IMG/VR virus record: IMGVR_UViG_3300047471_000194
Span: 1 to 28,059 of that record
DNA length: 28,059 nt
From: a virus
Strand: one strand, 5' to 3'
Numbering within the stretch: position 1 is the stretch's first letter; every line of letters starts with the position of its first letter. Below are positions 4,332 to 21,610 of the stretch, in pieces. Under the pieces are notes generated by a model. That model made no database searches. It worked only from the letters and a program-made list of their open reading frames with translations, and was not told the DNA's origin. The position numbers and the translations under genes are program-made.

Positions 4332-5582
4332 ATGAGCGAAACGACTCAGTCGGAGACCCGGCTGGCGACGCTCCTCGACGAGCGCCAGATCATCACGGAG
4401 AAGTGGGAGGCGCTGAACGCGTCGATCAACTCCCGTGACGAGAAGGTTCTCACCGAGACGGAGCAGGAGCATGTCCTGATGTACCGCGAGCGCGTCACCA
4501 CGATCGACGCGGAGACCACGACGCTCTCCAACGACATCGAGTCCACCCGCAACGCCATCGCCAACGCGGCCAAGCTGCGCCGTCTGATGGCGGGCGAGAC
4601 GGAGGGCGTCGAGATCGACGGCGACGGGATCATGTACCGCGACTTCTCGTCGTACGCGCTCGACATGATCCTGACGCGCGGCACGACCCAATGCGACAAG
4701 ATCGCCCAGCTGGCGGGCGGCAACGATGTCGTCCTGAAGGCCCGCGAGCGGTTGCAGTTGCTGCAGAGGGTTCCGGCGAACACGCTCTCCAGCAACGTCG
4801 CCGGTCTGCAGACGCCGCAGTACCTCGACCAGATCTTCCAGATCATCAACAAGAACCGGAATCTGGTCAATTCGGGCATGCGGACCTCGCTGATGCGGGG
4901 CACGCTCACCTACCCGAAGGTCACCACCCGCCCGGTCGTTTCGGTGCAGGCATCGCAGAAGACCGAGGCTGGCAACACCGGCATGGTCGTCGACTTGGTC
5001 ACGCAGACCGCCTCGACGTACCTCGGCGGCGGCGACCTGTCGTGGCAGGCGATCAACTGGACGACGCCGGACGCGTTGTCCCTGTGGTTCGACCTCGCTG
5101 CAGCCGACTACGCGCTGAAGACGGAGCAGGACGCCGCCAAGGCGGTCACCGACTCCGCGTACTCGCATCACATCTCGACCCAGGTCGGTGCAACCGACAC
5201 CTACGCCCAGCACATGACGGGCATCGGTGCCGGTTACGCCGCTGTGTTCGCCAACAGCGGCCGTGTCGCAGACACGGTCTACCTCGCCCCGGACCGTTTC
5301 GGCTACTTCCTGGGGCTCACGACCAGCGCATTCACGCAGTTCATGAGCGTCAACGGCCAGAACATCGGCCCGATGAACCTTGTGATCTCGCGCGGACTCG
5401 ACAGCGGCACGATCATCGTCGGTGACTCGGCGGGACTGCTCGTCGCAGAGACGGCAGGGGCTCCGGTCGAGCTCCGCGTCGTCGAACCGGCGATCGGTGG
5501 AGTCGAGGTCGGACTCATCGGAGCGTTCGAGGCCGATGTCGTCGACGACGGTGCCTTCGCACTCGTAACGACCGCCTCGTAA
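4332..5582 (+). CDS. HK97-fold major capsid protein
   Basis: 416-residue capsid subunit. Residues about 1-85 are a charged, helical coiled-coil segment (LLDERQIITEKWEALNASI onward), the expected delta/scaffolding domain removed by the upstream protease. The mature shell domain starts near residue 95 and shows family features: VPANTLSSNVAGLQTPQYLD, then LTYPKVTTRPVVSVQ, TASTYLGGGDLSWQAINW, and a late GAPVELRVVEPAIGGVEVGL followed by a typical final strand (GAFALVTTAS region). It carries a strong ribosome-binding site and is followed by a stable hairpin, both consistent with very high expression. Confidence 0.94.
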   Translation: MSETTQSETRLATLLDERQIITEKWEALNASINSRDEKVLTETEQEHVLMYRERVTTIDAETTTLSNDIESTRNAIANAAKLRRLMAGETEGVEIDGDGIMYRDFSSYALDMILTRGTTQCDKIAQLAGGNDVVLKARERLQLLQRVPANTLSSNVAGLQTPQYLDQIFQIINKNRNLVNSGMRTSLMRGTLTYPKVTTRPVVSVQASQKTEAGNTGMVVDLVTQTASTYLGGGDLSWQAINWTTPDALSLWFDLAAADYALKTEQDAAKAVTDSAYSHHISTQVGATDTYAQHMTGIGAGYAAVFANSGRVADTVYLAPDRFGYFLGLTTSAFTQFMSVNGQNIGPMNLVISRGLDSGTIIVGDSAGLLVAETAGAPVELRVVEPAIGGVEVGLIGAFEADVVDDGAFALVTTAS

Positions 5583-5604
5583 GGTACGAGGCGTAGAGGG
5601 GAAA

Positions 5605-5639
5605 GGGAGGGTCCGGCCACCAGGGGGCTGGATCCTCCC
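5605..5639 (+). terminator. Stable hairpin after the capsid gene
   Basis: Inverted repeat with a 14-bp stem (5605-5618 pairing with 5626-5639, two G-T wobbles) around a 7-base loop, starting 23 bases after the capsid stop. No T-run follows, and the next gene's ribosome-binding site (AAAGGAG) begins about 10 bases later. It is therefore more likely a partial terminator or mRNA-stabilising hairpin that raises capsid message over downstream genes than a full terminator. Confidence 0.5.
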
Positions 5640-5658
5640 GCTTCCGAAAGGAGAGAGC

Positions 5659-5934
5659 ATGAGTGAGATGTCAGGGATGGAGTCGGGGACTCAGGAGAAC
5701 ACGGGAGGCATGCCCGCAGGACCGGAGCCGTACAACCCATCGGGGCAGGAGATGCCCACCGACGGCGGCAACTACGGCACCAACGCGTCACCCGCTCCCG
5801 GCGATGTCGTATCGCCCGACGTGGAGATGCCCGGAGACGCGAGCACGGGTAGCGGCGGCAACGTCCCGGCGCAGATCGCGGAGCAGTTGCCTGCCGGCAA
5901 CTCGTTCGCCCAGATGCCGACCCCGGACAACTAG
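5659..5934 (+). CDS. Low-complexity Gly/Pro/Met-rich protein after the capsid
   Basis: 91 residues, rich in Gly, Pro, Met, Asn and Ser with almost no hydrophobic core; it is acidic and almost certainly disordered. The ATG is preceded by AAAGGAGAGAGC, a good ribosome-binding site. No family recognised. Its place right after the capsid gene would suit a minor head component, linker or decoration-associated peptide, but the sequence alone does not show this. The next gene starts three bases after its stop. Confidence 0.7.
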   Translation: MSEMSGMESGTQENTGGMPAGPEPYNPSGQEMPTDGGNYGTNASPAPGDVVSPDVEMPGDASTGSGGNVPAQIAEQLPAGNSFAQMPTPDN

Positions 5935-5936
5935 AG

Positions 5937-6086
5937 ATGACGCCGTACACGGAGCGTCGGGCGATGGGACACTACAACCCGACAGGCGAGATCACGAAGT
6001 CGACTACGACTGACAACCTCGCCGGACTCGGCGCTCCGCAGGCGGTCAAGGCCAAGCCCAATCCGAAGGCGAAGAAGAAGACGTAG
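5937..6086 (+). CDS. Small basic head-region protein
   Basis: A 49-residue frame from ATG 5937 to TAG 6084-6086 that fills exactly the gap between its neighbours. It starts MTPYTERRAMGHYNPTGEI and ends in a lysine-rich tail KAKPNPKAKKKT. Its stop directly abuts the next ATG (TAGATG), the same junction style as other genes here. No family recognised. The strongly basic tail could bind DNA or the acidic capsid interior; that is inference. Confidence 0.65.
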   Translation: MTPYTERRAMGHYNPTGEITKSTTTDNLAGLGAPQAVKAKPNPKAKKKT

Positions 6087-6983
6087 ATGGCTGTCGTCTG
6101 GGCCTACGCGGGATCCACGTCGATCTCGGCAACCGTGGACACGGTCGTCGGGCACGACTACCAACTGATCGTCACCGACGCGAACTCGCAGCACATCGAC
6201 GACTTCAGCGGCAACGGGTCACCGATGGTGCGGACGGTCACCCCGCTGGCAGGTCTGGTCGCAGGCAACGTATTCGGCGGCGACGTTAGGGACATCACCG
6301 ACAGCACGTTCCTCTCTGCGGAGAATTTCGTGTACGCGACTCCGTCCGCCGGCAGCGGTGGTCATGCGGGGACATGGTCCTATGACGGATCGCGCTCGAT
6401 CTCGTTCACGGCCACCCTGACCGTCGGAGTCCAGTACAGGCTCTACCTCGACTACTTCAGCGGCGGCGTCTTCTTTGAGGATGCAGGGACGCCGTTCACC
6501 GCTACCGGGGTCGAGCAGCTGCTGGAGATGGTGGCGACGCGCACGCTGGACGCAGTATTCGAGGCGTCGTTGTGGCTGAACCAGGACGAGTTCACGTCGC
6601 AGGCGAGCCAACTCTTCACCAGCGGCACACCTGTCGGCGTCACGTCCTATGCGACAACCGCCGACCTGTTCCGCATCCTCAAGATCAAGACTCCGACGGC
6701 GGATCAGACGCTCGCCGCGCAGGGAGACCTGGACACGGCGACGATCGAGATCAACGCGGAGATCGACCATTCGCCGGCAGGCCCAGCGCTCACAACCCAG
6801 GGGCTGGAACTTTGCAAGGGAGTCTGCATCGATCGTGCCGCTGACCTTTGGCGGCACCGCGAGTCCGCGCCGGGGATCCTCGGCGTTGTCGATGAGGCTG
6901 TCCCGTCGTCGTTCGGCCGGTACTCCTGGGAGCGGTACGCGCAGCGGCTCTCTCCACTCAAGGAGCAATGGGGCATCGCCTAG
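6087..6983 (+). CDS. Head-tail connector with duplicated beta-rich N-terminus
   Basis: 298 residues in two parts. The C-terminal third (about 188-298, from YATTADLFRILKI through GLELCKGVCIDRAADLWRHR to YSWERYAQRLSPLKE) is helical and resembles head-tail connector/adaptor proteins that dock under the portal, which fits its position. The N-terminal half is beta-rich and contains a duplication: residues 5-29 and 97-121 align without gaps at 12 of 25 identities (W-x-Y-x-G-S-x-S-I-S-x-T...V-G-x-x-Y-x-L). Connectors of this type are usually just over 100 residues, so the N-terminal part is an addition, perhaps displayed on the neck. Connector assignment is fairly confident; the role of the added part is unknown. 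Confidence 0.72.
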   Translation: MAVVWAYAGSTSISATVDTVVGHDYQLIVTDANSQHIDDFSGNGSPMVRTVTPLAGLVAGNVFGGDVRDITDSTFLSAENFVYATPSAGSGGHAGTWSYDGSRSISFTATLTVGVQYRLYLDYFSGGVFFEDAGTPFTATGVEQLLEMVATRTLDAVFEASLWLNQDEFTSQASQLFTSGTPVGVTSYATTADLFRILKIKTPTADQTLAAQGDLDTATIEINAEIDHSPAGPALTTQGLELCKGVCIDRAADLWRHRESAPGILGVVDEAVPSSFGRYSWERYAQRLSPLKEQWGIA

Positions 6984-7442
6984 ATGGCGACCATCGCTCA
7001 GGTCATGGATGCCATGGCCGCACAACTTGAGGACGAGCTCCAGCCGGTGTCCCCGGTGACATTGCACTTCGAGCCGCGTGCCTTCGCGATCGCGGAGACA
7101 CCGGCGATCGACATGCTGATCGCCAACCCGACCGGACTCGAGGCTGGGCTAGCCGCGTACGGTGACCTGTACGGCGGGATCCCGATCACGGTCCGGGTGC
7201 GAGTGTCCACCGCCGACCTGTACACGGGCGAGGACATCCTGCTCGCGCTGATGGACGACGAGGACGACATGTCGATCGTCAAGGCGCTCGACACGGATCA
7301 CACCCTCGGCGGCTGGGCGCAGGATCTGAAGTGGCAGGACGGGTTCCCCTGGTCCGGCTACACCGACTTTACGGACCTGAACGGCGAAGGGTTCTTCCTC
7401 GGCTCGCTGCTCCAGGTCGTCGTCGTGAAAGCGAAGAGTTGA
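6984..7442 (+). CDS. Tail terminator / head-tail joining-like protein
   Basis: 152 residues, beginning with a helix (MATIAQVMDAMAAQLEDEL) and continuing into alternating strands: IPITVRVRVSTADLY, a helix LLALMDDEDDMSIVKAL, then TLGGWAQDL and a final strand LGSLLQVVVVKAKS. This layout and its position after the connector match siphovirus tail-terminator or tail-completion proteins, which cap the tail tube and join it to the head. Assignment is by pattern and gene order rather than a diagnostic motif. The ATG directly follows the connector stop. In most related phages the tail tube gene would follow closely; here an enzyme cassette intervenes. Confidence 0.65.
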   Translation: MATIAQVMDAMAAQLEDELQPVSPVTLHFEPRAFAIAETPAIDMLIANPTGLEAGLAAYGDLYGGIPITVRVRVSTADLYTGEDILLALMDDEDDMSIVKALDTDHTLGGWAQDLKWQDGFPWSGYTDFTDLNGEGFFLGSLLQVVVVKAKS

Positions 7443-7528
7443 TACGCAGCGACGGATTCATGGTGCTCCTTGGAATGATCATCTGCATTGTCGTTGCGCT
7501 GACGCTGATCGAGGTCTTCTACTCGTGA
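7439..7528 (+). CDS. Single-helix membrane microprotein
   Basis: A frame of 29 residues from a TTG overlapping the previous stop (7439), or 22 residues from ATG 7460. The sequence is dominated by one hydrophobic helix, MVLLGMIICIVVALTLIEV. Its stop overlaps the next gene's GTG (GTGA), the coupling style used throughout. The ribosome-binding site is weak for either start. No family recognised. It sits at the head of the enzyme cassette and could anchor a cassette enzyme at the membrane, but this is speculative. Confidence 0.5.
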   Translation: MIRSDGFMVLLGMIICIVVALTLIEVFYS

Positions 7529-8013
7529 TCGCCAAGCCTGAGACGTTCGACGCGCTGAATCGGAACGCGCAGCCCTACCCGTCCTTCCTGCTGCCGAAAG
7601 ACGGCGGGACGGCGCTGTCGTTGTTCGCAGCCGGGTTCTGGGGTTGGAACGACGGCATCCATCTGATCCGTGCCGGCCTGACCGTCGACTTCGTCGACAC
7701 TGACGCGGACAGGCTGTTCGAGATGACGCTGCTGATGCCAGAGGGACACGCCTTCCATGTCGACGACGCCTATGAGTTCGCCAGCCGCGCCGGCATGGAG
7801 GGCCGCGAGTGGGATGTCGTGTCGGTGGATCCGTTCATGGGTCACATGCAGGAGCGCTCCTGGGAGATGCTCTACCTGTGGCTGACGATCGCCCGCAAGA
7901 TGGTGACGCTCACCGTCAGAAGCGATGTGGAAGTGCTCGAGGATGACACCTGGGCGGCCTCGTACTTCCCTCGCAACGAGAAGGTCGGCTGGCTAGTGAT
8001 GCGCCGTGCTTGA
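7525..8013 (+). CDS. Rossmann-fold, class I methyltransferase-like protein
   Basis: 162 residues. The order of elements suggests a small SAM-dependent methyltransferase fold: a glycine-containing first loop after a strand (LSLFAAGFWGWNDGI, about 31-45), a second strand ending in an acidic residue (VDFVDTD, 54-60), and a motif IV-like strand WDVVSVDPF (96-104). The first loop lacks the classic GxGxG, so cofactor binding is uncertain. It is the first enzyme of the cassette, starting at a GTG that overlaps the microprotein stop and ending in an 8-base overlap with the next gene. Substrate unknown; with glycosyltransferases downstream, a sugar or acceptor modification is plausible. A degenerate non-catalytic Rossmann protein is the alternative. 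Confidence 0.5.
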   Translation: MIAKPETFDALNRNAQPYPSFLLPKDGGTALSLFAAGFWGWNDGIHLIRAGLTVDFVDTDADRLFEMTLLMPEGHAFHVDDAYEFASRAGMEGREWDVVSVDPFMGHMQERSWEMLYLWLTIARKMVTLTVRSDVEVLEDDTWAASYFPRNEKVGWLVMRRA

Positions 8014-8647
8014 GACGCTGGCGCTTCCCGTCGACCTCGTCGGTGACTGCGTCGAGGAAGGCTGCGCCGACCACGCGCAGCATCTGGCCGAAACGCTCGC
8101 CTCGATCCGCTACCAGAGAGGCGTGTCGATCATGGCCTGCCCCGCCTCGCTCGACGAGTGGCGCTCCGAGCATCGGACCGCGCGCAAGCGCAGCGACCGC
8201 TGTGAACGTCGCGGCTACATCGTCAACGAGGTCGACTACAGCCAGTACTCCGACGACATGTTCGCGATCAACACGTCCCTCGATGAGCGTCAAGGGCGAC
8301 CGATGGCGGCTGGCTACACGAAGTTCTGTGAGCGCGGACGGCTTGCCCAGTTCCCCTGCGACCTCCACAACACGCGCACCTACGGTGTCCTGTCACCACG
8401 CCTCAATCTCGTCGCCTATCTGACCTTGCATCGCAGCAACGAGCTCGCCATGGTGTCGATGATCCTCGGCCACGGTGACTATCTGCGTGACGAGGTCATG
8501 TACCTCCTGTTCGCCGGCATGGTCGAGGATCAGTCAGGCAACCCTGGCATCCTCTACTACAACCGCCACGACTCAGGGCAAGAGGGACTTCGCTTCTACA
8601 AGGAGCGCGTCGGGTTCAGGGAGGGGGATGTGGCATGGTCGACGTGA
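8006..8647 (+). CDS. GNAT-like acyltransferase
   Basis: 213 residues. The region from about 125 to 210 follows the GNAT pattern: strands around RLNLVAYLTLHR, a central LGHGDYLRDEVMYLLFAG segment, a strand GILYYNRHD, and the end signature GLRFYKERVGF followed by VAW. The N-terminal part is charged and helical with several Cys (C14, C20, C45, C66, C108, C118), which is not typical. It may transfer an acyl group to an amino sugar, which would pair logically with the deacetylase further down. Fold assignment is by pattern only. The GTG start overlaps the upstream stop and the 3' end overlaps the next glycosyltransferase by 13 bases. Confidence 0.5.
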   Translation: MLETLALPVDLVGDCVEEGCADHAQHLAETLASIRYQRGVSIMACPASLDEWRSEHRTARKRSDRCERRGYIVNEVDYSQYSDDMFAINTSLDERQGRPMAAGYTKFCERGRLAQFPCDLHNTRTYGVLSPRLNLVAYLTLHRSNELAMVSMILGHGDYLRDEVMYLLFAGMVEDQSGNPGILYYNRHDSGQEGLRFYKERVGFREGDVAWST

Positions 8648-9291
8648 CGATCATCAGCTGCCTGTACGGAGCAACCCACGACAACTACCTGTCCGACTGG
8701 TTGCACGCCGTCGGGATGCTCAACCCGGCACCGCGCGAAGTCGTCATCGGCACCGACCGCTACCGGCACATCACCAGCGTGCTCGAGGTGTTCCGCCGCC
8801 GCCAGAACAGGGACTCGTACCCGCAGGCTTTCCACCTGAACAGCGCGCTTGAGCAAGTGACGAGCGAATGGGTCTGGATCCACGACATCGACGACCTCGC
8901 CTTCCCTGATGCGCTCGAGGGGATCGAACAGGTCGACGCCGATGTCATCCAGTGCGGCTACGAGCGCAGTGATTGGGAGGTCTATCTTCCTCCCGTCATG
9001 GACAACGCTGAGATCTTGGCGCTCGACCACAATCCGTTCGTAGCCGGATCCTTTATCCGCACCGACATCCTGCTCGACGCCGGCGGGTTCCCTGACTGCG
9101 CGTTGCAGGACTGGGCGCTATGGCGCAGGCTCGCCACGATCGGTGCCGTGTTCGCTGCCGGCGACAGGCCGCGCTTCAAGTACATGCGCCACGGGCTGAC
9201 GCGGGGCGCGACAGAGTTGACGCTCGAGGAGCGCGGCAAGCACATGCGCGAGATGCTCCGCTGGGAGGACAGTCTTGCTGTCGCCAAGTGA
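8635..9291 (+). CDS. GT-A glycosyltransferase (family 2-like), first of three
   Basis: 218 residues with the GT-A layout: N-terminal strand VDVTIISCLYG, a helix, a second strand REVVIGTDRY, the region AFHLNSALEQVTSEWVWIHD containing the metal/nucleotide-sugar DxD at D84-D86, then PFVAGSFIRTDILLDAGGF and LQDWALWRRL (158-165), matching the acceptor-side E/D-D-W-x-L motif of family 2 enzymes. It is shorter than many family 2 enzymes but complete in motifs. It probably transfers a sugar from a nucleotide donor to a protein or glycan. It overlaps both neighbours (13 and 17 bases), so it is translated as part of the cassette. Confidence 0.78.
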   Translation: MVDVTIISCLYGATHDNYLSDWLHAVGMLNPAPREVVIGTDRYRHITSVLEVFRRRQNRDSYPQAFHLNSALEQVTSEWVWIHDIDDLAFPDALEGIEQVDADVIQCGYERSDWEVYLPPVMDNAEILALDHNPFVAGSFIRTDILLDAGGFPDCALQDWALWRRLATIGAVFAAGDRPRFKYMRHGLTRGATELTLEERGKHMREMLRWEDSLAVAK

Positions 9292-9871
9292 CGTGACCGC
9301 CGTGATCGTGACGCGCGGAGACGTTCCCCTCGATCCGATCATCGACACGCTCGTCTTCCCTGACGTGATCGTCTGGGACAACAGCCGCGAGGAGAAGGAC
9401 CAGATGACGTACGGACGGCTGCTCGGAGCGCTGCGAGCGGACACGGGGATCATCTACAGCCAGGACGACGACATCGTCCACTCGCCCGAGAACCAGATGC
9501 AGATCCTGGCCGCATACTCGGAGTCGTATCTCGTCGGCTGCATGTGGAAGGACTGGTCGGATGGAGCGCGACGGCAGGGGATCGAGGGGGGCTACGACGA
9601 TCTTGTCTTCCCAGGCTCAGGTTCGATCAGCAACCGCGAGCTCTGGGTCGACGCCCACCTCCGCTACCTGGAGCACTACCCACACGACGACTTCTTCCGC
9701 ATGTGGTCGGACACCATCATCGGCGTCATCACTCCGACCGTCCAGCTGCCGCTCCGCTTCGAGGAGCTCGACTGGGGCAACGACGACAACCGGATGGCGC
9801 ACATGGAGAACGCCGTCGAGTTGAAGACCGAGGCGATCCGGCGTGGCCGCGAGGTGCGAGATGCGTCCTAG
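9275..9871 (+). CDS. GT-A glycosyltransferase, second of three
   Basis: 198 residues. First strand DVTAVIVTRG, second strand DVIVWDNSRE (the donor-side aspartate of GT-A enzymes), a helix, then GIIYSQDDDIVH with the DxD at about 64-66, and a later DDFFRMWSDTIIGVITP segment on the acceptor side. It is not a close copy of the gene upstream, so the two probably catalyse different steps. The TTG start at 9275 is preferred because GGGAGGAC lies just upstream; the in-frame GTG at 9293 has no ribosome-binding site. It overlaps the next gene by 11 bases. Confidence 0.72.
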   Translation: MLSPSDVTAVIVTRGDVPLDPIIDTLVFPDVIVWDNSREEKDQMTYGRLLGALRADTGIIYSQDDDIVHSPENQMQILAAYSESYLVGCMWKDWSDGARRQGIEGGYDDLVFPGSGSISNRELWVDAHLRYLEHYPHDDFFRMWSDTIIGVITPTVQLPLRFEELDWGNDDNRMAHMENAVELKTEAIRRGREVRDAS

Positions 9872-10691
9872 AGCACCGTTCAACATGGCCGACCTGGAGG
9901 ATCTCGACACGCTGTTCATGTCGAAGGCCGACAGGGTCATCCCGCTGCGCGAGGTCGTCGCCGGCGATCGTGCCCCGAACGCGATCGGGATGCGCCACGA
10001 CTGCGACAGTCAAATGTCGCTCCTCACCGCTACGAATATGGCAGCGTGGGAGCAGAAGCGCGGTTACCGCTCCAGCTACTACATCCTCCACGGCTCCGGC
10101 TATTGGGATCAGCCAGGGTTCGAGTCCTACCTGGAGGTGATCGCGCTGCACGGCCATGAGATCGGGATCCACGTCAACGCGCTCGCGGACGCGCTCCGCA
10201 CCGGCCGCGACCCCGACGAGATCCTCGAGGAAGCACTCGCACGGCTGCGCGGACTTGGACACGATGTCGTCGGTGCCGCGGGCCACGGCGACAGGTTGTG
10301 CAGCTACGGAGCAGGAGATGGCGAGGCGTGGTTCGCCAACGACGAGCAGTTCCTCGAGTGCCGACGCGGGCAAGTGGGGGACACGATCGTCGAGGGAGGC
10401 GTGCGCGAGATCAACCGTGGCGCTGCCAGTCTGCTCTTGCAGCCTCGCCCGCTCGCTGACTTCGGCCTTGAGTACGAGGCGCTCTTCTGTGCTCTGCCGT
10501 TCAACTTTCGCTTCAGCGACTCCGGTGGCAAGTGGAACCCGGAAGATTTCATGCACATCGCGTCTCTGCTCAACGCGTACGTCACGACGACGGAAGCACC
10601 ACAGACGCCTGACGATCCGAAGCAGCTGCACATGCTGATCCACCCGGACTGGTGGGCCAACGCCTTCCACATGTCTCCGGTGGCCGCGTGA
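9861..10691 (+). CDS. NodB-like polysaccharide deacetylase
   Basis: 276 residues from ATG 9861, which has GAGGTG five bases upstream; an in-frame GTG at 9843 lacks such a site. The NodB/carbohydrate esterase 4 pattern is visible: RHDCD (45-49) for the catalytic base and metal aspartates, HGHEIGIHVN (97-106) with the H-x(4-5)-H metal pair, GHGD near 141-144, and LIHPDWW (259-265) for the late catalytic His. Such enzymes remove N-acetyl or O-acetyl groups from glycans. No signal peptide is seen, so it acts in the host cytoplasm, unlike most cell-wall deacetylases. Flanked on both sides by glycosyltransferases, it probably edits an acetylated sugar in the same pathway. Confidence 0.72.
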   Translation: MRPRAPFNMADLEDLDTLFMSKADRVIPLREVVAGDRAPNAIGMRHDCDSQMSLLTATNMAAWEQKRGYRSSYYILHGSGYWDQPGFESYLEVIALHGHEIGIHVNALADALRTGRDPDEILEEALARLRGLGHDVVGAAGHGDRLCSYGAGDGEAWFANDEQFLECRRGQVGDTIVEGGVREINRGAASLLLQPRPLADFGLEYEALFCALPFNFRFSDSGGKWNPEDFMHIASLLNAYVTTTEAPQTPDDPKQLHMLIHPDWWANAFHMSPVAA

Positions 10692-11449
10692 AGACGCTCT
10701 GGTTTGTCGTGCCGGTCCACGGTCGGCTGGAGCTCGCCAGGATCTGCCTGCGCCAGTTACGCCGGACATGCGACGCGCTGATCGAAGAGGGCGTCATGGC
10801 GAGCGCCGTGGTCGTGTCGGATGCGGACACGTTGGAGGATCTGTGGCCGCATGATCTCCGGTTCGGCTGGGTGATCCGAGAGAACGACTACACCTCCGCG
10901 AAGTTCAACGACGGCATCCAGCTAGCGACCGACCCGCGCTACAACCCGAACCCGGTCGACTACGTCGTCCCCTGCGGATCAGATGACTGGCTCGACCACA
11001 AACTTTTCACGGAACCTTTGCCCTCCGCGCATGAGATCTTCGGCTTCCAGCAGATGTCGTTCGTGCGCGAGGATGGCAGGGAAATCGTCTCTCCCACGAT
11101 CGGCTACAACGGAGGGTCGGGCATCAGGATCATCCCGCGCGAGTTGCTCGAGGCGCTCGATTACCGGCCTGCAGACGAGGACCGGATGCGCGGCTGCGAC
11201 ACGTCGATCCTGTCCAATATCCGTGTCGCGAACCCCCGCCTGGAGGTGAGGCATTGGCATCTTCACGCACGTCAGATCGTCGACTGGAAGACGCCCGGAC
11301 TCCAGTTGAACTCGTACAAAGAGGTGACCGCGATCCACGGGGCATCCTCACCGGACGACCCGTTCGAAGTTCTCGCGGACTGCTACCCGGCGGAAGCGCT
11401 GGAGGAGATGCGCGCCTATTACGCCGACCTCGTTTTGGCGGCGGCGTGA
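10688..11449 (+). CDS. GT-A glycosyltransferase, third of three
   Basis: 253 residues from GTG 10688, whose bases overlap the deacetylase stop (GTGA). First strand TLWFVVPVHGRLELARICL, donor-side strand AVVVSDAD, then AKFNDGIQLATDP and DYVVPCGSDDWL with the DxD-equivalent SDD at 98-100, followed by GYNGGSGIRIIPRELLEAL and a CDTSILSNI segment. The N-A/D-G-I-x-x-A and GSDDW pattern is typical of family 2 enzymes. An in-frame start at 10652 would overlap the upstream gene by 40 bases and is disfavoured. The stop overlaps the next tail gene start, so cassette and tail module are translated together. Confidence 0.75.
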   Translation: MKTLWFVVPVHGRLELARICLRQLRRTCDALIEEGVMASAVVVSDADTLEDLWPHDLRFGWVIRENDYTSAKFNDGIQLATDPRYNPNPVDYVVPCGSDDWLDHKLFTEPLPSAHEIFGFQQMSFVREDGREIVSPTIGYNGGSGIRIIPRELLEALDYRPADEDRMRGCDTSILSNIRVANPRLEVRHWHLHARQIVDWKTPGLQLNSYKEVTAIHGASSPDDPFEVLADCYPAEALEEMRAYYADLVLAAA

Positions 11450-11682
11450 AGTATCTGCTGCTGGAGGTGCAGGGCCAGCGCGAGTACCGGGGCCACCGTC
11501 CGGGCGAGCAGTTCGTGACGAGGCTCGACCCTGCGCTCGAGCGCGGCATCGCTCGCGGCAACGTGATCGTGGTTGCGGAGGTCGAGGCGAAGCTTTCGGA
11601 GGGCCAGTACGGACTCCCAGAGGATTGGCCGACGGGAGCGTCGGCTGATGCAACAGTCACCGAGAGAGGAGGAATCAAGTGA
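11446..11682 (+). CDS. Small protein upstream of the tail tube gene
   Basis: 78 residues from GTG 11446, overlapping the glycosyltransferase stop. It begins MKYLLLEVQGQREYRGHRPG and carries a GEQFVTRLDPALERGIARGN segment, then a polar tail. Small proteins with a G-x-x-P-G-E-x-F ... L-D...G.I pattern often precede tail tube genes in phages; I cannot name the family or role. Its end contains AGAGGAGG, the ribosome-binding site for the major tail protein, and its stop overlaps that gene's GTG. Confidence 0.65.
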   Translation: MKYLLLEVQGQREYRGHRPGEQFVTRLDPALERGIARGNVIVVAEVEAKLSEGQYGLPEDWPTGASADATVTERGGIK

Positions 11683-18079: not shown

Positions 18080-18471
18080 TGGCGAGCCAACTCTTCCCCA
18101 AGGGCGCGGGCCACCTCCTCGGCGCGACGACCAAGGTCGATCTCGTCGCGGACAACATCAAGTTCCTCTTCTATTCGGCCGCGATCACGACGACCTGGGA
18201 GTTCGTCGGTGACCTGACCGGAGGTTCGATCGTTGCGCGCTCGGGCAACCTTGCGTCCAAGACAACCACGAACGGAGTCTTCGACGCGGCCGACGTGACG
18301 GTGACGGCTGTGTCGGGTTCGGCGTTCACGCACGTCGTCCTGTACGACGACACGCCGGCTACGGATGCGACCAAGCAGCTGATCTGCGTCTTCGATGTGG
18401 CGAGCTTCACGCCTAGCGGGGGCGACATCAACGTCGTCTGGAACGCTTCCGGCCTGTTCTCGATCGCCTGA
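18079..18471 (+). CDS. Conserved phage structural (tail-tip) protein
   Basis: 130 residues. Pattern: MASQLFPKGAGHLLGATTKV, IKFLFYSAA, then a S-G-N-L-A-S-K-T stretch, NGVFDAADVTVTAVSGSAFT, HVVLYDDTPATDATKQLICV, and a final SGGDINVVWNASGLFSIA. This order (K-F-L ... L-x-x-K-T ... G-V-F-D-A-D ... V-L-Y-x-D-T) recurs in tail-region proteins of many phages infecting Gram-positive hosts. It is probably a small beta-sandwich at the tail tip. Function not established. It overlaps both neighbours by one base. Confidence 0.65.
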   Translation: MASQLFPKGAGHLLGATTKVDLVADNIKFLFYSAAITTTWEFVGDLTGGSIVARSGNLASKTTTNGVFDAADVTVTAVSGSAFTHVVLYDDTPATDATKQLICVFDVASFTPSGGDINVVWNASGLFSIA

Positions 18472-19463
18472 TGGCTGTCGTCTTCATAGAAGGATTCGAT
18501 CACTACCTTGGGGGGTCGGCTATCACCAAGGGGTGGAACGGAAACTTTGGCACCAGCCCGGCAGGACGATTCGATGGGTTCGCAGCTCGCTTCGCGGCTA
18601 CCGCTACCCAAAGAACCCATGGGCTGCCATCGTCATACGCGACGATCATCGCCGGATACGCGTTCCGCGCCTCGACATCGCCTCCTGCCTCGACTTTCGA
18701 TACGTTCGTTTTCCAGGCTGGCGCGGTCTTGACTTGCAGGATCGGTGTCAACTTGTCGGGATTCATCGTCGTCCGCAACAGTGGTGGCACAGTCATTGCC
18801 ACGGGCACGTCTGCGCTGATCGCGAACGCCTGGAATTACATCGAGGTCAAGCTGTTCGTCAACGGGGCCAGTGGAACCGTCGAGGTACATCTGAACGGTG
18901 TGACGGAGATCGCTTCTACGACGGGAAACTTCGGGTCGACGAACATCGACACAATAGGGATCAACCAGACCACTTCGAACAGCAACACCGACTACGACGA
19001 CATGTACGTCCTCGACACCACCGGCTCGTCTCCGCGCAACACCTTCCTCGGCGACGTTCGCGTCGAGACGATCTACCCGACCGGAGCTGGAGCTCACACC
19101 CAATGGACACCAGACTCAGGATCGAACTGGGCGCGCGTCAGCGAAGCCCAAGCGGACGGCGACACCAGCTACGTCGCAGACGGGACACCCAACGACCTCG
19201 ACTCGTACGTTTTCGGGGACATCGACGGCGGGGCCACCGTCTACGGAATCCAGACCAACCTCTACGCCCGTAAGGACGACGCTGCTACTCGTCAGATCGC
19301 GAACCTGATCCGTCAGGCCAGCACCGACTACATCGGCAGCACGGTCACGCTCTCCAGCAGCTACGCCTTCTTCTCGCAGCTTTACAACCAGGATCCGACA
19401 GCAGCCGACTGGACGGCGACGAACATCAACGCCGACGAGTTCGGTATCAAAGAGATCGCATAG
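18471..19463 (+). CDS. Lectin-like (LamG/concanavalin-type) tail protein A
   Basis: 330 residues. The N-terminus MAVVFIEGFDHYLGGSAITK and a jelly-roll-like region (about 60-190, including WNYIEVKLFVNGASGTVEVH, then NGVTEIASTTGNF and DYDDMYVLD) match the laminin-G/concanavalin-like domain common in phage tail fibres. The C-terminal ~120 residues form a second conserved unit ending QASTDYIGSTVTLSSSYAFF ... LYNQDPTAADWT ... ADEFGIKEIA. It is clearly paralogous to the gene at 20630-21610. Likely surface glycan or receptor binding. Confidence 0.72.
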   Translation: MAVVFIEGFDHYLGGSAITKGWNGNFGTSPAGRFDGFAARFAATATQRTHGLPSSYATIIAGYAFRASTSPPASTFDTFVFQAGAVLTCRIGVNLSGFIVVRNSGGTVIATGTSALIANAWNYIEVKLFVNGASGTVEVHLNGVTEIASTTGNFGSTNIDTIGINQTTSNSNTDYDDMYVLDTTGSSPRNTFLGDVRVETIYPTGAGAHTQWTPDSGSNWARVSEAQADGDTSYVADGTPNDLDSYVFGDIDGGATVYGIQTNLYARKDDAATRQIANLIRQASTDYIGSTVTLSSSYAFFSQLYNQDPTAADWTATNINADEFGIKEIA

Positions 19464-19487: not shown

Positions 19488-20630
19488 GTGGCCCTAAGTC
19501 GCGTAGGTGGCTCGAGCGCCGCTGCCACATCGATAGCGATCCCCACTCATGTAGCTGGGGATCTGATCGTCATCTGGGCGTACCGCGACGGCAACACAAC
19601 GCCGCCCACGGTGCCCGCAGCTGCCGGAACCGTTCCGGCATTCACGACGATTGATGGTCCGACCGGTGCGAACCTCAACTCTGCTGTCTGCGCCTATGCG
19701 GTTGCCGCCGGCACGACGGACACGTCGGGTACATGGACGAACTCGACCGGCATGTCGGTCGAGGTTTGGCGGGGGGCATCGTCGTCACCGTCACCGATAG
19801 GTGGTCACGCACAGTCGGGGGGATCGGTTGCCAGCGGAGGAAACCTCGCTGTTCCTGCGATCACGCTCAGTGATCCGACCGGCAACTCGGTTGTACTCGC
19901 CTTCGCTGGCTGGCAGACCGTCACGGCCTGGAGCGCCGCCCCGTCTGGGTATACGCAGCGATCTCAGGTTGCGACCGAATGCGAGGCTCTGAGCAAGAAC
20001 AGCACGACTACCGCTGGGGCGTTCAATGTCAGCGGCACCGCCTCAGGGACAGGTGGGACCAGGACGCAGCAGCTGGAGATCCTGGCCGACTTCGGGAACC
20101 GCGTCTCGCAGGAGACGGTCGAAGTCGTCTACACGACGACGGGTGCCAAGGCTCGAGTCAGCCAGGAAGTAGCTGAGGTTCTCTACTCGACGGGCTCTGC
20201 GAAGGCGCGCGTCTCCCAGGTCGCAGTCGAGATCCTCACTCGCTTCCCAGTTGTCAAATCTCGTGTCTCCCAGGTCGCGGTCGAGGTTCTCAAGTCCCGC
20301 GCAGACCTACGGAGCATGGACTTCATCTCGTCGGTCACGGTTGTCCATGCGCCAGTCCTCCAGGGGAATATCACCCCCAGCTTCATCGGCAGTCAGACCG
20401 TTGTCTACACGCCCGTCCTCTCTGGGTCCGGTGTCAACGTCCCGTTTATCCCGAGCGTCACCATCGTCTACACGCCGACGCTCTCACTCAATGTCCCATT
20501 CATCGGTAGCAACACGACCGTCTACCCGCCCACCATCCAGATCCACTTCACCGGAGACGGGGTCAGTCAAGTCACGCTAGAACTCCTCATGGCGTACAGC
20601 ACCGACGCCCACATCTCGGGGAGGCACTGA
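19488..20630 (+). CDS. Repeat-built tail protein
   Basis: 380 residues. Residues 1-204 look like a beta-rich domain (VGGSSAAATSIAIPTHVAGD, LIVIWAYRDGN, AFAGWQTVTAWSAAPSGYTQ). The rest is built of two repeat types. Type one: four exact 18-residue units beginning RVSQ (bases 20100, 20154, 20208, 20262), with a fifth copy GVSQVTLELLMAY at the C-terminus. Type two: four units beginning FI-x-S-x-T-x-V (20322, 20382, 20445, 20499) with VYTPxL endings. It lies between two lectin-like paralogues, so a tail-fibre or spacer role is likely. GTG start with only a weak ribosome-binding site. Function inferred. Confidence 0.65.
   Translation: MALSRVGGSSAAATSIAIPTHVAGDLIVIWAYRDGNTTPPTVPAAAGTVPAFTTIDGPTGANLNSAVCAYAVAAGTTDTSGTWTNSTGMSVEVWRGASSSPSPIGGHAQSGGSVASGGNLAVPAITLSDPTGNSVVLAFAGWQTVTAWSAAPSGYTQRSQVATECEALSKNSTTTAGAFNVSGTASGTGGTRTQQLEILADFGNRVSQETVEVVYTTTGAKARVSQEVAEVLYSTGSAKARVSQVAVEILTRFPVVKSRVSQVAVEVLKSRADLRSMDFISSVTVVHAPVLQGNITPSFIGSQTVVYTPVLSGSGVNVPFIPSVTIVYTPTLSLNVPFIGSNTTVYPPTIQIHFTGDGVSQVTLELLMAYSTDAHISGRH
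20100..20315 (+). repeat. Four tandem 54-base units in the tail repeat protein
   Basis: Units start at 20100, 20154, 20208 and 20262, each exactly 54 bases (18 codons) and each opening RVSQ. A diverged fifth copy starts at 20559. The third and fourth units are closest to each other, sharing CTCCCAGGTCGC and the peptide RVSQVAVE. Confidence 0.85.
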
Positions 20631-21610
20631 TGGCGCTCATCCTGATCGAAGGATTCGACCACTACGACGTGGATGACGCGTTTCGCAAAGGGTGGGACAA
20701 CATTACCCTCATGTCCCGTGGCAGAGTGCCGTTCCCACTCAGCCAGTCGGTCAAGGTCATCATCAACAACGGAATCAACAAGACTCTTCCAGGCTCCTAC
20801 AACGAATTGATCATGGGATTCGCGTTCAAGCTGTCCGCGTTCCCCGCCGCGGACAAAGCGATAGCGAAGTTCGATCCTTCGGCTACCGCATTCGTCGGGG
20901 TCACCCCCACAGGGTTCCTCTACCTCAGCGACTCGACGGGTGCGAATCTTGCCACCGGGGGCACCCAACTCGTGATTGATACTTGGTACTACTGCGAGCT
21001 CCACGCGACAGCCACCCACGGCGAGATTCACCTGGATGGGGTGTCTGAGATCGCATCTACGGCGGGCACCTATACGACTCCGTGGGACAACATCGGATTC
21101 CAATATCAGGTACTCGGCGGGAACAGCGTCATCGTCGATGATGTGTATGTGATCGATCCTTCGACGGGCATCAACACGACCTTTCTCGGCCCTGTCGTGG
21201 TCCGCACTATCTGGCCCGACGCGGACGCTACCTATACGGATTTCACCCCATACCCGTCGTCGGCCGACCCCGACCATTTCCCGCATGTCAACGAACGCAT
21301 CTTCGACTCCGACGTGACGCTCGTCTACGACGGCACTCCCGGCCAGAAGGACAGCTACAAGATGGCGCTCTATGGAGACGATGCCGTCTATGGGGCACAA
21401 CTCAACCTGGGAGCTCGGAAGGGAGACTTCGTCACGCGGCAGATCGAACCGCTGATCCGGCAGTCCGCGACCGACTACACGGGAGCTACATCGACCCTGT
21501 CGCTCGACTATCTCTTCTACAGCTGGCTACTCAACCAGGATCCATCCGGCAGCGACTGGACAATCGCAACCGTGGACGCCGATGAGTTCGGAGTCGAGAT
21601 CGTCGCGTGA
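20630..21610 (+). CDS. Lectin-like (LamG/concanavalin-type) tail protein B
   Basis: 326 residues, a paralogue of the protein at 18471-19463. Shared landmarks: IEGFDHY near the N-terminus followed by KGW, YCELHATATHGEIHLDGVSE (lectin core), IVDDVYVIDPSTGINTTFLG, and a C-terminal unit KDSYKMALYGDD ... YGAQLNLGARKGDFVTRQIE ... LLNQDPSGSDWT ... DADEFGVEIVA. The C-terminal unit is more conserved between the two than the lectin cores, suggesting a shared attachment part and diverging binding parts. The start overlaps the repeat protein's stop (TGATGG). Confidence 0.72.
   Translation: MALILIEGFDHYDVDDAFRKGWDNITLMSRGRVPFPLSQSVKVIINNGINKTLPGSYNELIMGFAFKLSAFPAADKAIAKFDPSATAFVGVTPTGFLYLSDSTGANLATGGTQLVIDTWYYCELHATATHGEIHLDGVSEIASTAGTYTTPWDNIGFQYQVLGGNSVIVDDVYVIDPSTGINTTFLGPVVVRTIWPDADATYTDFTPYPSSADPDHFPHVNERIFDSDVTLVYDGTPGQKDSYKMALYGDDAVYGAQLNLGARKGDFVTRQIEPLIRQSATDYTGATSTLSLDYLFYSWLLNQDPSGSDWTIATVDADEFGVEIVA

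What the first reader, a model, noticed from the sequence alone, without database searches (positions are those of the whole stretch)
7525..11449. Glycan-type enzyme cassette embedded between tail terminator and tail tube genes
Six overlapping genes (Rossmann/methyltransferase-like, GNAT-like, GT-A, GT-A, NodB-like deacetylase, GT-A) sit inside the structural operon where only one or two tail genes are expected. Each overlaps its neighbour, and the last overlaps a tail gene, so they are made with virion proteins. Three different glycosyltransferases plus a deacetylase and an acyltransferase suggest a multi-step sugar chain with N-acyl editing. None has a signal peptide, so the work is cytoplasmic. 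Decoration of capsid or tail protein during assembly, perhaps to alter adsorption or escape binding molecules, is the leading idea.
Basis: partly seen in the sequence, partly recalled or inferred. Interest (0 to 1): 0.8.

Follow-up and report, generated by a model that had tools for sequence, protein, structure and literature searches.

The report
Phage cassette for sugar-coating virions
A soil phage keeps a set of sugar-building enzymes among its particle-building genes, most likely to attach a chemically edited sugar chain to its own shell and tail; sugar-coated phages are already known, but this set of enzymes, including a likely sugar de-acetylase and a transferase of the amino-acid-attaching type, has not been described in what I could search.

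Summary
Six enzyme genes do sit between the tail terminator and the tail tube of this uncultured soil phage, all under purifying selection. C and F are GT2 glycosyltransferases and D is probably one. E is a CE4/NodB-like deacetylase, B a GNAT and A a small Rossmann protein. Two corrections: most overlaps are 4-17 bp, and a seventh small gene (sm) lies between F and the tail tube.

About 67 distinct virus contigs carry cassette genes. F, B, E and A form the core; C and D vary. In a second group of contigs with a P22-like coat protein, the cassette follows the coat gene. No nucleotide-sugar or DNA-base-hypermodification genes were found. The nearest cultured relatives by capsid are Corndog-type mycobacteriophages, a group with reported virion glycosylation, whose non-homologous glycosyltransferase cassette also lies among the head genes. 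All tail tubes here end in Ser/Thr, all capsids in Ser.

Best reading: virion glycosylation with amino-sugar editing. B's closest solved folds are aminoacyl-tRNA-dependent transferases (Sbb17, MprF, FemX), so deacetylation by E followed by aminoacylation by B is a testable idea. New variant of a known kind; acceptor site and glycan chemistry are inferred, not shown.

The parts
6984..7442 (+). Tail terminator (upstream boundary of the cassette)
   Evidence: phrog_17840 tail terminator E 1.4e-5; conserved upstream neighbour in relatives
7525..8013 (+). A: small Rossmann-like protein, class I methyltransferase-like (dehydrogenase-like alternative open)
   Evidence: Relatives hit PF08241 (3 of 47, best 1.1e-3) and PF03721 (10 of 47, best 6e-4), all weak; present in 27 of 29 contigs that hold both tail terminator and tail tube; dN/dS 0.11
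8006..8647 (+). B: GNAT of the FemX/MprF/Sbb17 type, candidate aminoacyl- or acyltransferase; invariant C118, H121 and K199, nearly invariant C20
   Evidence: PF13480 in 12 of 55 relatives; invariant residues; AlphaFold model pLDDT 94.9; nearest PDB folds Sbb17, MprF, L-PGS, FemX, E 3e-7 to 1e-5; 28 of 29 contigs
8635..9291 (+). C: GT2-type glycosyltransferase (variable component)
   Evidence: PF13641 E 1.3e-5 (below curated cut-off); phrog_9549 glycosyltransferase E 2.3e-8; 11 of 29 contigs
9275..9871 (+). D: probable GT-A glycosyltransferase
   Evidence: Invariant Q63-D64-D65-D66 in 35 relatives; best PDB sequence match is KfiA, E 0.34, not significant; 23 of 29 contigs
9861..10691 (+).
   Evidence: Model pLDDT 92.8; the 22 best PDB folds are CE4 deacetylases, best E 2e-3 with modest TM-scores; RHDxD, HExGxH and LxH motif residues invariant in 43 sequences; 28 of 29 contigs
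10688..11449 (+).
   Evidence: PF00535 in 7 of 46 relatives, best 4.8e-7; invariant G109 and D111, nearly invariant S110 and D112; 29 of 29 contigs
11446..11682 (+). sm: conserved small protein (78 aa) of unknown fold; motif YRGHxPGxxF; GTGA overlaps with F and with the tail tube gene
   Evidence: Follows F in nearly all contigs that hold it; in-frame inside F in L016
11679..12086 (+). Tail tube protein (135 aa), candidate acceptor; ends ...GIGTS
   Evidence: Named from position before chaperone-like genes; C-terminal residue Ser/Thr in 33 of 33 relatives although the preceding residues vary
4332..5582 (+). Major capsid protein, candidate acceptor; ends ...VTTAS
   Evidence: phrog_2263 E 5e-30; Ser last in 43 of 43 relatives; 26-27% identical over its length to Corndog-type capsids

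Best explanation
The cassette makes and attaches a short glycan to major virion proteins, most likely the tail tube and probably the capsid, in the infected cell's cytoplasm during late expression. Shown: the genes, their conservation, their order and their folds, with A and D weak. Inferred: F, the invariant glycosyltransferase next to the tail-tube gene, adds the first sugar to Ser/Thr, plausibly at or near the C-terminus; D and C extend it using host nucleotide sugars; E removes the N-acetyl group of a hexosamine residue; B acylates or aminoacylates the freed amine; A methylates or otherwise modifies the sugar. The core F+B+E+A is kept and the extending transferases vary, as expected if the outer glycan structure diversifies.
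For: Location: between tail terminator and tail tube in most of 29 contigs that hold both (F 29, B 28, E 28, A 27, D 23, C 11). Directly or closely after a P22-like coat gene (PF11651) in several contigs whose capsid is of that different type. A capsid-based search not aimed at the cassette found no contig in which the tail terminator is followed directly by the tail tube. E-F-sm-tail tube are joined by GTGA overlaps. No hydrophobic segment that would mark a signal peptide or membrane anchor. No thymidylate-synthase-like hypermodification enzyme, nucleotidyltransferase or NAD-dependent epimerase in 12 records, with positive controls. Precedent: nearest cultured relatives by capsid are Corndogvirus, also among the portal matches; Catdawg has an O-methyltransferase plus three glycosyltransferases between portal and protease; Che8, Corndog and Myrna have glycosylated virion proteins (PMC12363180; see also PMC11600133), with glycans at the C-termini of capsid and tail tube (PMC12619734). 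Tail tubes end in Ser/Thr in 33 of 33 although positions -2 to -6 are Ser/Thr in only 15-30%; capsids end in Ser in 43 of 43; the cassette enzymes do so in 0-13%. Capsid and tail protein of four mycobacteriophages with annotated glycosyltransferases all end in Ser.
Against: No biochemical data. C-terminal Ser/Thr is not specific: the tail terminator has it in 42 of 45 and the DIT-like protein in 13 of 25; Charlie, without a recognisable glycosyltransferase, also ends in Ser in both proteins, and the Phrux capsid and Arib1 tail protein end in Ser/Thr. The P22-like coats next to the cassette end in Ala. The enzymes are not detectably homologous to the Corndog-type and Che8 glycosyltransferases. 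A and D assignments are weak. The lineage offers no cassette-free member for a direct contrast.
Confidence: 0.68

Rival explanations
1. The cassette modifies a host surface polysaccharide (receptor masking or superinfection exclusion) and sits in the late operon only for expression timing.
For: B and E neighbour each other inside a bacterial Wzy/O-antigen-type locus (L147), so the same chemistry serves cell-surface glycans elsewhere. C has a weak match to the N-acetylglucosaminyltransferase 6h1j (E 0.5), which I recall as a wall-teichoic-acid enzyme.
Against: No membrane protein, flippase, polymerase or lipid-linked transferase in the cassette; no hydrophobic segments. Placement is tied to coat or tail tube in two lineages with different capsids. 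Expression with virion genes is late for receptor masking (inference).
Confidence: 0.14
2. The cassette hypermodifies phage DNA (glycosylated, acylated bases) against restriction.
For: Phage glycosyltransferases that glycosylate DNA are known (PMC12619734); A is methyltransferase-like.
Against: No thymidylate-synthase/hydroxymethylase family member in 12 records, several over 40 kb, though records may be incomplete. A lacks a conserved amino-methyltransferase DPPY motif: only the D of 'VDPF' is invariant. DNA-modification genes are not expected to track tail tube and coat genes.
Confidence: 0.06
3. The cassette glycosylates a variable fibre or decoration protein rather than capsid or tail tube.
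For: One contig carries a 1092-aa collagen-like protein (PF01391 E 3e-119) inside the cassette between E and F, with an extra methyltransferase and a GT4. Many contigs carry variable genes between capsid and head-tail connector, or between E and F.
Against: The window and its closest relatives have no such gene in the cassette, and the inserts are not conserved while the cassette is.
Confidence: 0.12

Closest known systems
Virion glycosylation by mycobacteriophages Corndog, Che8 and Myrna (Freeman et al. 2023, cited through PMC12619734, PMC12363180, PMC11600133; the original paper is not held)
   Same: Several glycosyltransferases, with a methyltransferase in Corndogvirus, where they lie inside the head operon (Catdawg genes 33-36 between portal and protease); related capsid and portal; capsid and major tail proteins end in Ser.
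   Different: No detectable homology of A, C, D or F to those enzymes; adds a CE4/NodB-like deacetylase and a FemX-like GNAT, neither of which is annotated in the Catdawg cassette; located before the tail tube instead of after the portal.
Aminoacyl-tRNA-dependent GNAT transferases: Sbb17/Sba18, BD-12 Orf11, MprF, FemX (PMC12945691)
   Same: Top fold matches of B; invariant Lys in an aromatic-Lys context near the C-terminus, resembling DhpH-C Phe328-Lys329 (position match by eye, not by superposition); Orf11 aminoacylates an amino sugar using glycyl-tRNA.
   Different: B is only 213 aa with one GNAT core, whereas FemX and its antibiotic-pathway relatives have two; TM-scores are modest (0.46-0.58) and tRNA dependence is untested.
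CE4/NodB polysaccharide deacetylases (PgdA, PdaC, chitin deacetylase)
   Same: Fold and Asp/His motifs of E.
   Different: Very divergent: Pfam PF01522 not reached (best 0.14 in one member); motifs RHDxD and HExGxH instead of the classical TFDDG and HSxxH; no signal-peptide-like segment.

Membership tests
Mycobacteriophage-type virion glycosylation system | Phage-encoded glycosyltransferases | tested here: met
   C and F are GT2 by profile, D probable
Mycobacteriophage-type virion glycosylation system | Homology of the transferases to Corndog-type/Che8 enzymes | tested here: not met
   Best profile E-values about 1
Mycobacteriophage-type virion glycosylation system | Glycan on capsid or tail tube C-terminus | not testable with these tools
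   Only indirect: Ser/Thr-ending tail tube and capsid
CE4/NodB deacetylase (E) | CE4 fold | tested here: met
   The 22 best PDB matches of a pLDDT 92.8 model are CE4 family, probability up to 1.00, but best E only 2e-3 and query-normalised TM 0.23-0.39
CE4/NodB deacetylase (E) | Asp-His-His metal site and catalytic Asp/His | tested here: met
   D53, D55, H105, H110 and H267 invariant in 43 sequences; roles assigned by analogy only
CE4/NodB deacetylase (E) | Match to PF01522 above cut-off | tested here: not met
   Best E 0.14 in 1 of 16
FemX/MprF-type aminoacyl-tRNA transferase (B) | GNAT fold closest to this subfamily | tested here: met
   Top 13 PDB matches are Sbb17/Sba18, MprF, A-/L-PGS and FemX
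FemX/MprF-type aminoacyl-tRNA transferase (B) | Double GNAT domain | tested here: not met
   213 aa and one GNAT core by secondary structure of the model; two domains stated for the family in PMC12945691
FemX/MprF-type aminoacyl-tRNA transferase (B) | tRNA-dependent aminoacyl transfer | not testable with these tools
   Needs an enzyme assay
GT2 glycosyltransferase (F) | PF00535 match and DxD motif | tested here: met
   7 of 46 relatives, best 4.8e-7, not the window protein itself; GSDDW motif
Class I methyltransferase (A) | Methyltransferase profile match | tested here: inconclusive
   Weak matches to both methyltransferase and dehydrogenase Rossmann models
Phage DNA hypermodification system | Base-modifying hydroxymethylase or thymidylate synthase homologue | tested here: not met
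   0 of 12 records, some possibly incomplete

The most novel reading that the evidence does not exclude
Phage particles carry an amino-sugar glycan that is deacetylated by a phage NodB-like enzyme and then aminoacylated from aminoacyl-tRNA by a single-domain FemX/Sbb17-like enzyme, giving a charged, amino-acid-bearing coat on tail tube and capsid.
Probability: 0.27. Interest if true: 0.86.

Novelty: new variant of a known kind. Interest (0 to 1): 0.62.

Why it matters
Experimentally supported virion glycosylation of phages is known to me from a few mycobacteriophages. A conserved, non-homologous multi-enzyme cassette in a large uncultured soil-phage lineage, also found in phages with a different capsid type, would show that sugar-coating of virions evolved more than once and is a core trait in some lineages. 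The deacetylase plus aminoacyltransferase-like pair predicts specific glycan masses that mass spectrometry can test.

Tried and rejected
Direct Pfam and PHROG scans of single window proteins gave almost nothing except C; profiles built from relatives were needed. DNA search of the window and protein searches with E, F and C in 50,697 phage records found no match. Homology of A, C, D and F to Corndog-type and Che8 enzymes was tested and not found. C-terminal Ser/Thr as a universal signature of glycosylation was rejected: it also occurs in the tail terminator and in Charlie, and is absent from P22-like coats. DNA hypermodification and phage-made nucleotide sugars were looked for and not found. 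The ORF 5663-6013 after the capsid gene is probably the wrong frame (codon-position GC); 5659-5934 is likelier. Literature searches found no report of a deacetylase/GNAT virion-glycan cassette, but only open-licence papers are held.
Full report
What is there. The window is a 28-kb virus record with a classical siphophage structural order: terminase, portal, protease, capsid, connector, tail terminator, [cassette], small gene sm, tail tube, chaperone-like genes, a long tape-measure-like ORF, minor tail proteins (tail tube, chaperone and tape measure named from position). The six cassette genes are real: GC3 matches neighbouring genes and dN/dS against relative L020 is 0.09-0.18. Conserved start sites shorten E (9861) and F (10688); E-F, F-sm and sm-tail tube overlap by GTGA, consistent with translational coupling into the tail tube gene. 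A is separated from the tail terminator by 82 bp.

What the enzymes are. C reaches GT2 Pfam and PHROG glycosyltransferase models, below the Pfam curated cut-off. F does so through relatives (PF00535, best 4.8e-7). D has an invariant QDDD motif and only a non-significant match to KfiA. E models confidently (pLDDT 92.8) and its 22 best PDB matches are CE4 deacetylases, with modest TM-scores; the expected Asp and His residues are invariant. B models confidently (94.9) and its nearest solved folds are aminoacyl-tRNA-dependent transferases: Sbb17/Sba18 of streptothricin-type pathways, MprF, A- and L-PGS and FemX. PF13480 is matched by 12 of 55 relatives. A review states that a related enzyme, Orf11, aminoacylates an amino sugar with glycyl-tRNA and that such enzymes have two GNAT domains (PMC12945691); B has one. 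A is a small Rossmann protein of unresolved type.

Relatives. Scans of viral contigs with E, F and B gave about 67 distinct contigs. In 29 that hold both tail terminator and tail tube, F is in 29, B and E in 28, A in 27, D in 23, C in 11. These contigs were found by way of cassette genes, so the counts describe co-occurrence, not prevalence. Order B-A is commoner than A-B. A capsid-based scan returned no contig where the tail terminator is followed directly by the tail tube, so the cassette looks like a core trait of this lineage, although many contigs end too early to tell. Exceptions are informative: in L050, B-A-D-E moved upstream of the portal while F-sm stayed near the tail genes; in L032 and L045 the tail tube moved next to the capsid gene while F-sm stayed; L052 has two F copies with no other cassette gene recognised. 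In a separate set (L027, L072, L076, L129, L074 and others) F-B-(A)-(D)-E follows a P22-like coat gene.

Substrate. Placement points to virion proteins. The tail tube ends in Ser or Thr in 33 of 33 contigs even though residues -2 to -6 are Ser/Thr in only 15-30%; the capsid ends in Ser in 43 of 43, but its whole C-terminus is conserved, so that is weaker evidence. Capsid and tail protein of Catdawg, Che8, MooMoo and prophiGD91-2, all of which carry annotated glycosyltransferases, also end in Ser. Of seven other mycobacteriophages, two capsids and two tail proteins end in Ser/Thr; for six of these only part of the genome was viewed, so absence of glycosyltransferases there is not established, and the Giles tail protein is uncertain. 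The tail terminator (42 of 45) also ends in Ser/Thr, and P22-like coats end in Ala. I treat C-terminal attachment as plausible, not shown.

Comparison with the known. Virion glycosylation by phage enzymes is reported for Che8, Corndog and Myrna. The closest cultured phages by capsid (26-27% identity) and among the closest by portal (28%) are Corndogvirus, and Catdawg has an O-methyltransferase and three glycosyltransferases within its head operon. Those enzymes are not detectably homologous to this cassette, and a deacetylase or GNAT is not annotated in the Catdawg cassette. B and E also neighbour each other in a bacterial Wzy-type polysaccharide locus of a Desulfovirgula MAG (L147) and in an Anaeromyxobacter MAG (L146), supporting a joint action on an amino sugar.

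Rivals. Host-surface modification and DNA modification are less likely: no membrane-associated steps, no hydroxymethylase or thymidylate-synthase homologue, nucleotidyltransferase or epimerase in 12 records, though those records may be incomplete. Glycosylation of a fibre or decoration protein instead of capsid and tail tube stays open.

Verdict. Observation confirmed with small corrections; interpretation partly supported. New variant of a known kind, because the system appears to work like mycobacteriophage virion glycosylation but with unrelated enzymes and added amino-sugar editing. Chemistry, acceptor and benefit are inferences.

Noticed in passing
L016:10031-11020: The small protein sm is inserted in-frame inside glycosyltransferase F, just before its GSDDW motif; in nearly all other contigs sm is the gene after F. 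One contig only; could be an assembly effect.
   Followed up: partly
L014:2345-10013: A 7.7-kb insert between E and F holds a 1092-aa collagen-like protein, a PepX_C-domain protein, a methyltransferase and a GT4 glycosyltransferase.
   Followed up: partly
L024:8498-8860 and L025:10837-11265: HNH endonuclease and NUMOD3-containing genes inserted within the cassette, suggesting homing-endonuclease invasion.
   Followed up: no
window 6087-6980 and L009:15333-15869: The N-terminal ~180 residues of the connector protein match a stretch after the tape measure gene in L009; possibly a mobile domain.
   Followed up: no
window 18471-19463 and 20630-21610: Two proteins of the same PHROG family (phrog_2448) flank a minor tail protein, probably a duplication.
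   Followed up: no
window 5583-6087 and the same interval in L102, L116, L135, L140 and others: Between capsid and connector, relatives carry 0.5-6 kb of variable genes, some Ser/Thr-rich, possibly decoration or fibre proteins.
   Followed up: partly
window 6984-7442: The tail terminator ends in Ser/Thr in 42 of 45 relatives, like the capsid and tail tube; unexplained.
   Followed up: no
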